Source: Sphingobium chungbukense (GTDB lineage Bacteria > Pseudomonadota > Alphaproteobacteria > Sphingomonadales > Sphingomonadaceae). Taken from it: a stretch of DNA of 64,000 bases. Location of the stretch: positions 956,501 to 1,020,500 of the forward strand of contig NZ_LBIC01000001.1 in NCBI RefSeq assembly GCF_001005725.1, given 5' to 3'. The translations under genes were made by a program, and so were the position numbers. Below, in pieces: positions 23,551 to 30,241 of the stretch. Numbering within the stretch: position 1 is the stretch's first letter; each line of letters begins with the position of its first letter. Below the pieces are notes generated by a model. That model was not told where the DNA came from, did not search any database, and saw only the letters and a list, made by a program, of their open reading frames with translations.

Positions 23551-24441
23551 CTACGTCTCTTCCTCTTCCGGCATCACGTCCACCATCACCTTCACATTCT
23601 GACCGGAGCCGCCGACGAACAGCCCGTCCATTGGCGCGACGTCGGCATAATCCCGTCCCATGGCGACGAATACATGCCCGTCCCCGGCAATCACGCCGTT
23701 GGTCGGGTCAAAGCCGATCCATCCCCGCGTCGGCCCACACCACAGCATCACCCAGGCATGCATGGCATCAGCGCCCACCAGCCGTGGCATGCCCGGCGGC
23801 GGATCGGTGCGCAGATAGCCGCTCACATAGGCGGCGGGCAGCCCGAACCAGCGCAGCGCGGCCACCATCACATGGGCGAAGTCCTGGCACACGCCATGGC
23901 GCGCGGCAAAGGCGTCCTCCACCGGCGTCATCGCGTCGGTCGCCCCGCTCACATAGGCGAACGCGCCCTTGATCCGACGCGCCAGCGCCAGCGCAGCGCC
24001 GACGATCGGCCGATCGGACGCCAGCAGGTCGCCCGCCCACGCTCCGATCTGCGGCAATAACGGTACGCGCGGCGAGGCATGGAGAAATTGCGCCGGTCCG
24101 GCCGATCCCATGTCCCGCGCTTCCAGTGCCGCCTGCGCAACGGCGGCGATGATGGGGTCGTCGTCCTGCGGCTCGATCGGCGCGCTGTCCTGGATTCCGG
24201 CGCGGAAACTGCTCTCGATGACGATCTGATGCAGCAGGCTGTCGATCTCCAGCCGGGCGACATGGACCGGCCAGGCGCTGGGGCGCGATTCGATGGAGGA
24301 GGGCGCGGGATCGACCGCCAGATGATAGTCCGATGTCCATTGCCCCGGCCAGGGCGCGGGCCGCAGCCGGAGATTGAACCGCGCAAGCTGCACCAGCGCG
24401 TCATAGTGCACGATCGTCTGATGCCGGATGTGATAGATCAT
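23551..24441 (-). CDS. Transglutaminase-like family protein (short form)
   Basis: A 296-residue cytoplasmic protein with an N-terminal beta domain ([23 protein letters not shown]) of the kind found before bacterial transglutaminase cores. The papain-like catalytic triad is visible as C185 in RHGVCQDFAH, H228 in AMHAW and D245 in FDPTNG. The fold either cross-links or hydrolyses amide bonds. It is the last gene of a three-gene operon and overlaps the ATP-grasp/alpha-E gene by four bases. Comparative work on ATP-grasp, alpha-E and transglutaminase clusters predicts that they make or process a peptide; the product is unknown. Confidence 0.92.
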   Translation of the reverse strand: MIYHIRHQTIVHYDALVQLARFNLRLRPAPWPGQWTSDYHLAVDPAPSSIESRPSAWPVHVARLEIDSLLHQIVIESSFRAGIQDSAPIEPQDDDPIIAAVAQAALEARDMGSAGPAQFLHASPRVPLLPQIGAWAGDLLASDRPIVGAALALARRIKGAFAYVSGATDAMTPVEDAFAARHGVCQDFAHVMVAALRWFGLPAAYVSGYLRTDPPPGMPRLVGADAMHAWVMLWCGPTRGWIGFDPTNGVIAGDGHVFVAMGRDYADVAPMDGLFVGGSGQNVKVMVDVMPEEEET

Positions 24442-26915
24442 GACAGCAGGCTGACGCCCTCGCTCTTTTCCTTGCGTCGTTGCAGGAAATAGCGCTGTCC
24501 AATCGCATCCGAAAGGCCGAGCAGGCGGATTTCCGTGTCGCGGAGATCGTCCATCGTCAGCATGTCGCCGGTCAGTGGGGCCAGCCCCGCCGCCAGCACC
24601 GCGGCCAGCCGCTGCGGCTCCTCTGGCATGCCGTCAGTGTGCAGCGTCGGCAGCGCCGCGACATGTTCCGCCAGCCTTTGCGCCTGATAGACGATGGAGC
24701 GCGGGTTTTGCGGTTCCAGAGCCACCAGATCGCGTACCGGCGCCAGCGCCGGCCCGGACAGATAGCGGTTGCGATAGCTGATCTGGCTGTCGTTGAGATC
24801 GAGCAGCACGGTCAGGTCATCCGCCGACGCTCCTTCCGCACCGAACAGCATGGCGAGCCGGCAACCGTTGATCGCCCGCTCCATCCGCCGCCCCATATCG
24901 TGGAAGCGCCACCCCTCTGTCCGCCCCATATTCTCGGCGGCAAGGCCCGACAGCGCGGAAATCCGTTCGATCATCCGTGAGGAGGCCTCGAGCAAAGTCT
25001 CCGTCGCCCCGCCGTCGAAATCGGGCAGAGGCAACCGCACCAGCCGCCAATAATCGACCGCCAGCCGGTCGCGTAGTCCTTCGCCGATCCCTGCGACAGC
25101 CGTCATCAGCGAACGCACGCTGCCCGGTTGCGATCCATCACCCAAAGCCTGTGCGCAAAGCGGTCCGACCGTGCCCGCCGTACCGGAAGTCGCGCCCCAC
25201 AGTGCGAGCTGTCCCGTCAGCCGCGCCATGGTGGATGATTCGACCGCAGGGCCCAGATCGGCCTCGATCGACCCGCCGACAATGGCGCGTATCACCCGCG
25301 CGGTCATTTCGGTGCGCTCGATATAGCGGCCGAGCCAATAGAGATTGTCCGCCGCTTTTGCAGGCAGCATTCCGCCCACCCGCCGGATCGTGGGGGCGGC
25401 GGCCACGGCCGACAGCCCGTCCTGCGGCACCGGCTTGCCGTCCAGCACGCACATGTCCGCCGACAGGTCGCCCTCGCCCATCAGCGCCGCGCGAATATCG
25501 CCGTGCGCCGCCAGCCGGGCAAAGGCGCCGGGCATGATCCGCCATTGCCCCAATTCGTCGCGCGCCACGAAGACGCGCAGCGTGAAGGGCAGGGGGATCA
25601 TCTGCCCGTTGACGATGGCGGGCGTGGTCGACAGGCGCACCACCTCCTGGCCGACATAATCCATCGGCCGCCGTGCCATGGCGTTCAGCAGGGCGGTGCG
25701 CTGTGCCTCGTCCATGGCCGATCCGGGGAGGAAGCGCGTTCCCGTCAGCCCGGCGACATCGCGGTCGAAGGCCGATCCCACAACCAGTTCACCCATGGCG
25801 TCCGCGACATGCGCGCGTTCCGCGCTCTGCCCGCACCACCATGTCGCGATATTGGGCAGGATGAGGTCTGCGCCCAGCATCTCCTGCGCCAATTGGGGGA
25901 GGAAGGCCGCCATGGCACGCGATTCGATCACGCCGACGCCCGGCCAGTTGGCCAGCATCAGCCCGCCCTTCACGCAAGCGTCGAACAGGTCCGGCACGCC
26001 GATGCGCGACTCCCCGTCAAACGCCAACGGATCGAGAAAGCGGCTATCCATCCAGCGCCACAGGCCGTCGATCCGTTTCAGTCCCTGGATGGTGCGCACG
26101 AACAATTGCCCGTCCGACACGATCAGATCCTCGCCCTCGACGAGCAGCAGGCCAAGATAGCGCGCCAGATGCGCCTGTTCGGCATAGCTCTGGTTGAAGC
26201 GGCCGGGCGAGAGCAGGCCAATGCGCGGATCGCTGCGCTCGCAATCCGCCGCCAGTCCACGCCGCAAGGCGTTGAGGAACGGTGCCAGCCGCCGAACATT
26301 GAGCGCGCCCAGCAGATCGCCGGTCGCGCGCGACAGCGCCAGCCGGTTCTCCAGCGCATAACCCACGCCCACCGGTGTGCGCACCCGATCCGCCAGCACC
26401 CGCCATTCGCCCTCCGGCCCGCGCGCCAGGTCGGCGGCGTAGAAATGCACGAAATGCCCGTGGGGCGGCGGCGATCCGGTCATGACCCGCCAATAATGCG
26501 GACTGCCGGTGATGACGCTGGCAGGCAGCTTGCCCGTCCGGACAAGCGATTGCGTACTGTAGATGTCGCTGATCACGCGTTCCAGCAACTGCGCTCGCTG
26601 GGTGAGGCCGCGCTCGATCTGCGTCCATTCCCTCGACCCGATCAGCAGCGGGACGGGGCTTAGCGGCCAGGGCCGCTCTTGCTGGTCCCCGGTCAGGCGG
26701 AAGGCGAGGCCCAGATCGACCGCCTGCCGCTCGACATTGCCGGCCAGCACCGCCGGATCGCCCTGTGCCTGTACCGACAGCCGATCCAGCATGGTGCGCC
26801 AATGGCCGGCCATCTCCTGCCCGGCTCCGGCGAACAGGTCTCCCTTCGGCGCACGCGCCAGATAGGCCTCGGCCCAGCCGGTTACGTCCGGGGGAAGGGT
26901 GTCGGCCATGCTCAT
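24438..26915 (-). CDS. Circularly permuted ATP-grasp / alpha-E domain fusion protein
   Basis: An 825-residue protein. Residues about 60-480 match the circularly permuted ATP-grasp family (CP_ATPgrasp_2): [52 protein letters not shown] and the downstream [16 protein letters not shown] block. Residues about 515-825 are an alpha-E helical domain ([32 protein letters not shown]). In many genomes these are two neighbouring genes; here they are fused. ATP-grasp enzymes join a carboxylate to an amine using ATP, so ligation of a peptide-like product is likely. It is coupled to the transglutaminase genes on both sides by four-base overlaps. Confidence 0.93.
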
Positions 26916-29900: not shown

Positions 29901-30241
29901 GCAAGGTCGGTCCGGAGCTGCTCGTCATAGGCGAAGGGATACTCCTCCGCATAAGGCTCGACGAAGAAATCGAAGGGATTGATGATGTCGAGATCGGCCA
30001 GCAGATCGACCTCGACCGAGAAATGATCGACGGGCTCTGGAAAGACGATCCGCGCCAGCCAATTGCCGTGCGGGTCCTGCTGCCAATTGAGGAAGTGCCC
30101 CGGCGGATCGATCTTCAACGCATAATTGGGGATTTTCGTCCGGCTGTGCGGCGCGGGCCGCAACCGGATCACCTGCGGCCCGAGCGTGATCGGGCGACTG
30201 TAGCGATAGGACGTCAGGTGGTGGAGCGCGGCCTTCAGCAT
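26912..30241 (-). CDS. Large transglutaminase-like protein with DUF2126 C-terminal region
   Basis: A 1109-residue protein and first gene of the operon. Residues 1-290 form a bacterial transglutaminase unit with its N-terminal beta domain ([20 protein letters not shown]) and a triad at C179 in [11 protein letters not shown]228 in DLHAWAEAY and D244 in VALDATSG. The remaining 800 residues match the DUF2126 region found only in this long form, including [36 protein letters not shown] and [12 protein letters not shown]. No signal peptide is present, so it acts in the cytoplasm. It presumably processes or cross-links the product of the neighbouring ATP-grasp enzyme. Confidence 0.93.

What the first reader, a model, noticed from the sequence alone, without database searches (positions are those of the whole stretch)
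23551..30241. Fused ATP-grasp/alpha-E gene between two transglutaminase genes: an uncharacterised peptide-forming system
Three genes overlap by four bases each, so they are made together. ATP-grasp, alpha-E and transglutaminase clusters have been predicted by comparative genomics to build or process a peptide-like compound, but no product is known. Here ATP-grasp and alpha-E are one polypeptide, which gives fixed stoichiometry. Both transglutaminases keep their catalytic triads.
Basis: partly seen in the sequence, partly recalled or inferred. Interest (0 to 1): 0.6.

Follow-up and report, generated by a model that had tools for sequence, protein, structure and literature searches.

The report
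Amidoligase–transglutaminase operon with degenerate ATP-grasp

Summary
The three-gene operon is real, exactly where stated, with two 4-base overlaps and both transglutaminase triads intact. The source is probably Sphingobium (97% to S. fuliginis). The ATP-grasp/alpha-E fusion is not special: it is in 133 of 147 DUF2126 loci read. The new point is that the fused ATP-grasp is degenerate. The stand-alone paralogue of the Anbu (proteasome-homologue) operon keeps an invariant lysine and a GGYG loop in 18 of 18; among 133 fused proteins the lysine survives in 11 and GGYG in none. It is nevertheless under purifying selection and keeps metal-site-like residues and both alpha-E 'ER' motifs. The same genome also carries the canonical Anbu operon, and 76 of 84 DUF2126 genomes (against 11 of 215 others) hold two or more alpha-E copies. 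Best reading: the GS-like domain is the ligase, the fused protein a non-catalytic partner derived from the Anbu-type ligase pair, and the transglutaminase domains trim or transfer. The system was predicted in 2008-2009; I found no known product. New member of a known kind, with a testable twist.

The parts
26912..30241 (-). P0001: transglutaminase-like domain (residues 1-270) fused to DUF2126 GS-like amidoligase (275-1105), 1109 aa
   Evidence: Pfam; model: residues 1-293 match 3isr Z 22.7; the region from about residue 292 to 1076 matches glutamine synthetase superfamily chains Z 12.9-11.7
29432..30241 (-). transglutaminase-like part of P0001, triad C179/H228/D244
   Evidence: triad in 146 of 146 aligned sequences
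26927..29419 (-). DUF2126 putative amidoligase domain of P0001
   Evidence: PF09899 1286.5 bits; E331, K354, K381, E386, E676, N678, H723, R823, E825, D829, K830, E845, R847, E850 in 147 of 147
26912..26915 (-). ATGA overlap of P0001 stop and P0002 start
   Evidence: sequence
24438..26915 (-). P0002: circularly permuted ATP-grasp fused to alpha-E, 825 aa
   Evidence: Pfam; model pLDDT 88.1
25440..26852 (-). ATP-grasp fold of P0002 (residues 22-492), degenerate: G380 where the split paralogue has the invariant Lys; no GGYG loop
   Evidence: 3n6x Z 42.1, human glutathione synthetase Z 25.4; motif comparison
24486..25367 (-). alpha-E domain of P0002 (517-810), ER motifs E533-R534 and E679-R680 kept
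   Evidence: PF04168 207.2 bits; conservation
24438..24441 (-). ATGA overlap of P0002 stop and P0003 start
   Evidence: sequence
23551..24441 (-). P0003: stand-alone transglutaminase-like protein, 296 aa, triad C185/H228/D245
   Evidence: Pfam; 3isr E 2e-12; triad

Best explanation
The operon is a Sphingobium copy of the DUF2126-type transglutaminase/amidoligase cluster. SHOWN: gene content and order, triads, predicted folds, absence of the lysine and glycine-rich loop of the split paralogue in the fused ATP-grasp, and co-occurrence with alpha-E-bearing second systems (the Anbu operon in this genome). INFERRED: the ATP-dependent amide-bond step is made by the GS-like domain of P0001 (acyl phosphate, then amine attack, as in glutamine synthetase, gamma-glutamylcysteine synthetase and PafA), not by P0002. 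P0002 descends from an ATP-grasp + alpha-E pair of the Anbu-operon type that fused and lost ATP binding; it now works as a non-catalytic partner (substrate receptor, scaffold or regulator) that presents a carboxylate/peptide substrate to P0001 and P0003. The two transglutaminase-like domains act as thiol peptidases or acyl-transferases that trim, transfer or remove the ligated group. The partner system (split ATP-grasp with lysine and loop intact, alpha-E, transglutaminase, Anbu) supplies or consumes the same compound, probably in nitrogen limitation.
For: Fold: glutamine synthetase superfamily enzymes fill ranks 2-50 of the 50 rows shown for the DUF2126 region. Clamp: split ATP-grasp K316, K363, K462 and GGYG in 18 of 18; fused: Lys at K363 in 11 of 133, at K316 in 6, at K462 in 23, GGYG in 0; no column of the fused ATP-grasp domain has Lys in 80% or more, best 85 of 133. 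In Actinomycetota the one Tsukamurella fused protein lacks both while its split one has both. Fused and split are separate clades, FastTree support 1.0. P0002 is maintained: dN/dS 0.08-0.17 for both halves against three relatives. DUF2126 is better conserved (median 53.7% in the phylum set) than the fused ATP-grasp (37.1%) and alpha-E (28.3%). Co-occurrence: 84 of 84 DUF2126 genomes have alpha-E and 76 of 84 have two or more, against 11 of 215; 18 of 147 loci carry fused and split genes in the same fetched stretch, 6 have Anbu. Nitrogen: the four-gene cluster I35_5080-5083 is down by log2 6.0 to 9.4 in a Burkholderia cenocepacia ntrC mutant shifted to low nitrogen (PMC5491218, passages).
Against: The residues equivalent to D176, E189, N190 and R191 (metal-site-like) are kept in 124, 123, 122 and 133 of 133 fused proteins, so an unusual nucleotide mode cannot be excluded. 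11 of 133 still have the Lys, and so do 2 of 3 further fused proteins (Enterobacter, B. cenocepacia). Single fused sequences keep loop-like glycines: GGRG in L069, Gly at the three loop columns in L134, a loose Lys-plus-glycines pattern in L193. That K363/GGYG is the phosphate clamp rests on family knowledge and the fold match, not on a ligand structure of this family. Six own-family genomes have the fused gene but no DUF2126 match, five of the six with the transglutaminase gene found beside it, so P0002 cannot depend on DUF2126 everywhere. Foldseek alone gives only weak GS matches (E 0.005-0.02) and the P0001 model is middling (pLDDT 76.6). No activity of any of the three proteins is known to me.
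Confidence: 0.5

Rival explanations
1. Classic reading (Iyer et al. 2009, recalled and as cited in PMC5666114; first reader): the fused ATP-grasp is itself an active peptide ligase, its alpha-E half binds the carrier or substrate, and the transglutaminases process the product.
For: Same fold as glutathione synthetase and GspS; metal-site-like residues mostly kept; a split paralogue from the Yersinia bercovieri Anbu operon releases phosphate from ATP (PMC6376114, section 8 read).
Against: Loss in most or all fused proteins of the three lysines and the glycine-rich loop that are invariant in the split form. The protein shown to release phosphate is the split, not the fused, type.
Confidence: 0.2
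2. Mainly proteolytic/nitrogen-scavenging system: the transglutaminase-like domains are thiol proteases, the GS-like domain amidates or deamidates released peptides, and no dedicated product is made.
For: Nitrogen-limitation control of the cluster in B. cenocepacia; Anbu linkage; nearest solved relative is named 'putative cysteine protease' (3isr); Rv2569c, which I recall as a transglutaminase-like protein of the mycobacterial cluster, is reported to degrade casein and E-cadherin (PMC11081392, passages).
Against: A highly conserved GS-like amidoligase in the operon suggests synthesis. The Rv2569c work reports a serine-type inhibitor profile, at odds with a Cys triad.
Confidence: 0.2
3. Protein tagging: DUF2126 attaches an amino acid or peptide to proteins as PafA does with Pup, and the transglutaminases/Anbu remove the tag or degrade the target.
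For: Kinship with PafA within the GS/GCS superfamily (PMC2588565, passages); Anbu is a proteasome homologue encoded in the same genome.
Against: No conserved small modifier ORF near the operon in my scan of 20-90 aa ORFs, as also stated in PMC2588565.
Confidence: 0.1

Closest known systems
Anbu operon (ATP-grasp, alpha-E, transglutaminase, Anbu)
   Same: Homologous ATP-grasp, alpha-E and transglutaminase; a canonical copy lies on contig C19 of the same genome.
   Different: The window operon has no Anbu, has the DUF2126 amidoligase, and its ATP-grasp is fused to alpha-E and degenerate.
Transglutaminase-DUF2126 proteins such as M. tuberculosis Rv2566 (PMC2588565)
   Same: Same architecture: N-terminal transglutaminase-like domain, C-terminal carboxylate-amine ligase of the GS/GCS superfamily.
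   Different: No functional difference known; kinship rests on Pfam and the paper's description, not on a direct alignment to Rv2566.
Mfla_0391 (PDB 3n6x), split circularly permuted ATP-grasp
   Same: Fold, Z 42.1 over 444 residues, 29% identity.
   Different: 3n6x has the VVKEVQGSGGYG lysine and loop; P0002 does not.
Glutathione synthetase and glutathionylspermidine synthetase
   Same: Fold of the ATP-grasp part (8fbz Z 25.4, 2iob Z 21.9).
   Different: No sequence link found with E. coli Gss as a single sequence; residue-by-residue catalytic comparison not done.
Glutamine synthetase / gamma-glutamylmethylamide synthetase
   Same: Fold of the DUF2126 region (Z 12.9-11.7).
   Different: 7-14% identity in the aligned parts; about 250-310 residues aligned of some 780; substrate unknown.

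Membership tests
DUF2126 transglutaminase/amidoligase cluster | N-terminal transglutaminase + PF09899 | tested here: met
DUF2126 transglutaminase/amidoligase cluster | followed by ATP-grasp/alpha-E and a second transglutaminase on the same strand | tested here: met
   window; 133 of 147 loci carry the fused gene, 123 with it adjacent on the same strand, 125 with the transglutaminase after it
Active ATP-grasp ligase | ATP-grasp fold | tested here: met
   3n6x Z 42.1
Active ATP-grasp ligase | phosphate-binding Lys and glycine-rich loop as in the split paralogue | tested here: not met
   window G380, no GGYG; fused set Lys in 11 of 133, GGYG in 0 of 133; split set both in 18 of 18
Active ATP-grasp ligase | acidic/Asn metal ligands | tested here: met
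   window D176, E189, N190; 124, 123 and 122 of 133; assignment as metal ligands is by analogy, recalled
Active ATP-grasp ligase | ATP-dependent ligation | not testable with these tools
   needs protein
GS-fold carboxylate-amine ligase | GS fold | tested here: met
   ranks 2-50 all GS superfamily, Z 12.9-11.7, rmsd 3.5-5.7 A; Foldseek E only 0.005-0.02
GS-fold carboxylate-amine ligase | catalytic residues | tested here: inconclusive
   E-x-N (676/678), H723, E-x-R (845/847) in 147 of 147, but their mapping onto GS is by motif, recalled
Transglutaminase-like superfamily | Cys-His-Asp triad | tested here: met
Transglutaminase-like superfamily | transamidase or thiol protease activity | not testable with these tools
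   needs protein
Anbu operon | Anbu gene in the operon | tested here: not met
   no Anbu match among ORFs of window 16001-42000; Anbu lies on contig C19

The most novel reading that the evidence does not exclude
A duplicated Anbu-type ligase pair fused, lost ATP binding, and became a dedicated pseudo-enzyme adaptor of a GS-type amidoligase.
Probability: 0.27. Interest if true: 0.75.

Novelty: new member of a known kind. Interest (0 to 1): 0.42.

Why it matters
DUF2126 and alpha-E, two families of unknown product, occur together in 84 of 299 sampled Pseudomonadota genomes. If the fused ATP-grasp is dead, the natural biochemical assay (mix P0002 with ATP and amino acids) will fail for a reason, and work should move to the DUF2126 domain and to the split paralogue. 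It also gives a concrete genetic design: delete the two operons of one non-pathogenic strain singly and together.

Tried and rejected
Fusion as a special feature: rejected, it is the rule in the loci read. Efflux genes (MFS, HlyD, OEP) and DUF488 just upstream as part of the system: rejected; in the 146 other loci DUF488 was matched only in S. fuliginis L116, and the pump genes only as weak HlyD/OEP hits in L058, L113 and L171. Sigma-54-type promoter before the operon: the pattern scan gave no more hits than chance (26 found, 31.8 expected) and none in the 1.8 kb upstream of 30241; the sigma-70-type scan found no site there either. Small peptide substrate: 3648 ORFs of 20-90 aa in the flanks gave no cluster beyond 7 loci, and the recurrent ones look to me like antisense frames of neighbouring genes. 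Conserved neighbours: the largest cluster (26 loci) looks like generic ABC ATPases at scattered positions; a zinc metallopeptidase (PF15887) recurs in 16 loci, but PF15887 gave no match in the own genome, a search whose control genomes rang nowhere. Alpha-E fold: best helical matches Z 9.5, below the stated helical background, so uninformative. hhalign of ATP-grasp profiles to E. coli Gss as a single sequence found nothing. NCBIfam gave no hits for the three proteins. Literature: from the listings (and some passages) of the searches I found no paper stating that the fused ATP-grasp is inactive or naming a product; most papers were not opened, and Iyer et al. 2009, where it might be stated, is not held, so I do not claim it is unreported. 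Limits of the counts: the 147 loci are not a random sample (41 of 84 DUF2126 genomes, 25 of the other 41, and the best 80 of 588 relatives, mostly Alphaproteobacteria, from a capped list). Rows dropped: 4 of 22 split ATP-grasps, 2 of 133 fused alpha-E domains and 1 of 133 P0003-type sequences, as too short. Co-occurrence counts are not corrected for phylogeny, and alpha-E copies were counted, not each typed as fused or split. On re-checking I corrected two points: the loop is now counted without requiring the lysine, and the B. cenocepacia values are log2; the odds did not change.
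Full report
OBSERVATION. On the minus strand three ORFs run 30241..26912 (1109 aa), 26915..24438 (825 aa) and 24441..23551 (296 aa), with ATGA overlaps at both junctions. Pfam gives transglutaminase N-region and core plus DUF2126 'putative amidoligase' (275-1105, 1286.5 bits) for the first, circularly permuted ATP-grasp type 2 (89-469) plus Alpha-E (517-810) for the second, and transglutaminase N-region and core for the third. The nearest named relative of P0001 is 97% identical, in Sphingobium fuliginis DSM 18781 (L116), so the window is probably from Sphingobium.

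HOW COMMON. DUF2126 occurs in 84 of 299 sampled Pseudomonadota genomes and 42 of 199 genomes of the own family; alpha-E in 156 of 299. I read 147 DUF2126 loci: the window, 66 stretches from sampled genomes (largely one per genus: 41 of the 84 and 25 of the family set) and 80 named loci, the best 80 of 588 relatives in a capped list. This set leans to Alphaproteobacteria. A fused ATP-grasp/alpha-E gene is in 133 of 147 loci, on the same strand and adjacent in 123, with a transglutaminase gene after it in 125. Of the 14 without it, L161, L170 and L190 end at or near the contig end, and the genome of L096 has a fused gene elsewhere. So the fusion is the standard form; it also occurs in an actinomycete (Tsukamurella, L195).

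TWO SYSTEMS IN ONE GENOME. The same genome has on contig C19 a split ATP-grasp (469 aa), alpha-E (310 aa), transglutaminase (289 aa) and a 245-aa Anbu (best Anbu structure match E 7.2e-78). Across the 299 genomes, 84 of 84 with DUF2126 have alpha-E and 76 of 84 have two or more copies, against 11 of 215 without DUF2126 (no phylogenetic correction). In 18 of 147 loci fused and split genes lie in the same fetched stretch, and 6 of 147 also have Anbu. An Enterobacter plasmid carries split ATP-grasp, split alpha-E, DUF2126, a fused-length ATP-grasp gene (803 aa) and transglutaminase in a row.

THE FUSED ATP-GRASP IS DEGENERATE. In a joint alignment of 133 fused and 18 split ATP-grasps, the split lysines K316, K363 and K462 and the loop G369-G370-Y371-G372 are present in 18 of 18. 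In the fused set the K363 position is Lys in 11 of 133, K316 in 6 and K462 in 23. Counted without regard to the lysine, GGYG is in 0 of 133; Gly at all three loop columns is in 1 (L134), and a GG-x-G string near the site in 1 (L069, GGRG); a loose Lys-plus-glycines pattern hits 1 (L193). In the window the K363 position is G380. No column of the fused ATP-grasp domain has Lys in 80% or more (best 85 of 133); the split set has exactly those three. Outside the set: split proteins of Tsukamurella, Enterobacter, Deinococcus and Hymenobacter keep lysine and loop; three further fused proteins (Tsukamurella, Enterobacter, B. cenocepacia) lack the loop, and two of the three keep the lysine; six fused proteins from family genomes without a DUF2126 match lack both. 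What is kept: the equivalents of D156 (124 of 133), E169 (123), N170 (122), R171 (133) and R425 (133). Fused and split are separate clades with FastTree support 1.0. That K363 and GGYG are the ATP phosphate clamp is established knowledge of ATP-grasp enzymes applied by analogy; a split relative from Yersinia bercovieri releases phosphate from ATP (PMC6376114, section 8 read).

NOT JUNK. dN/dS between the window and three relatives (L116, L114, L117) is 0.083-0.173 for the ATP-grasp part and 0.102-0.157 for alpha-E; for P0003 it is 0.185-0.286. Alpha-E keeps R530, E533-R534 and R540 in nearly all sequences that reach that far (13 of 131 do not), and E679 and R680 in 129 and 130 of 131. Median identity to the window in the phylum set is 53.7% for DUF2126, 57.0% for its transglutaminase part, 37.1% for the fused ATP-grasp, 28.3% for alpha-E and 38.1% for P0003.

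STRUCTURE. The P0002 model (pLDDT 88.1) matches 3n6x at Z 42.1 and glutathione synthetases at Z 22-25 over the ATP-grasp part; alpha-E gives only helical matches at Z 9.5 or less, below the helical background. The P0001 model (pLDDT 76.6) matches 3isr at Z 22.7 over 1-293, and glutamine synthetase superfamily enzymes fill ranks 2-50 at Z 12.9-11.7 within about 292-1076, though Foldseek's own E-values for them are 0.005-0.02. This agrees with the 2008 assignment of Rv2566-type proteins to the carboxylate-amine ligase superfamily (PMC2588565, passages).

MECHANISM. Most likely the GS-like domain makes an amide bond with ATP, the transglutaminase-like domains transfer or cleave, and the fused pseudo-ATP-grasp/alpha-E protein is a non-catalytic partner evolved from an Anbu-type ligase pair. 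Nitrogen limitation is the likely setting: cluster I35_5080-5083 of B. cenocepacia (DUF404/407, DUF403, and two transglutaminase-like proteins, one 'large') has log2 changes of -8.2, -9.4, -9.4 and -6.0 in an ntrC mutant under low nitrogen (PMC5491218, passages). In another B. cenocepacia strain the DUF2126 gene lies directly after split alpha-E and transglutaminase genes, so the 'large' protein is probably DUF2126 (inference). Co-abundance of these domains with urea-metabolism domains was also reported (PMC3597751, passages). No NtrC/sigma-54-type site was found before the window operon. Rivals are listed separately.

VERDICT. The finding is a real and typical member of a predicted, unsolved system; its headline feature is ordinary, but the paralogue comparison yields a sharp testable claim that redirects which protein should be assayed.

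Noticed in passing
window 21060-23461 (+): TonB-dependent-receptor-like gene split between two overlapping frames (652 aa ORF ending 23018, 291 aa ORF 22586-23461 that seems to carry the barrel end): a frameshifted gene or a sequencing error (named by eye).
   Followed up: no
window 30288-34919 (-): MFS transporter, HlyD-like, outer-membrane efflux and DUF488 genes end 46 bases before the operon on the same strand; could be co-transcribed here, but the pump genes do not recur beside it elsewhere.
   Followed up: partly
L006 6768-10881 (own genome C19): Canonical Anbu operon in the same genome.
   Followed up: yes
L197 114-9305: IncFII-type plasmid of Enterobacter roggenkampii from blood carries the five-gene split + DUF2126 + fused + transglutaminase cluster; a Klebsiella pneumoniae plasmid also matches the ATP-grasp.
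   Followed up: partly
L067 2199-3317 and 15 other loci: A zinc-ribbon metallopeptidase (PF15887) recurs near DUF2126 operons, mostly on the opposite strand; a 'putative zinc-binding metallopeptidase' also lies by a split cluster in Hymenobacter (L199).
   Followed up: partly
L201-L206: Own-family relatives with fused ATP-grasp/alpha-E but no DUF2126 match; five of six have the transglutaminase detected next to it, and several lie near DnaJ-like and chorismate-synthase-like genes (named by eye).
   Followed up: partly
window 34023-34120 (+): ARAGORN reports a tRNA of unknown type inside coding genes; probably false.
   Followed up: no
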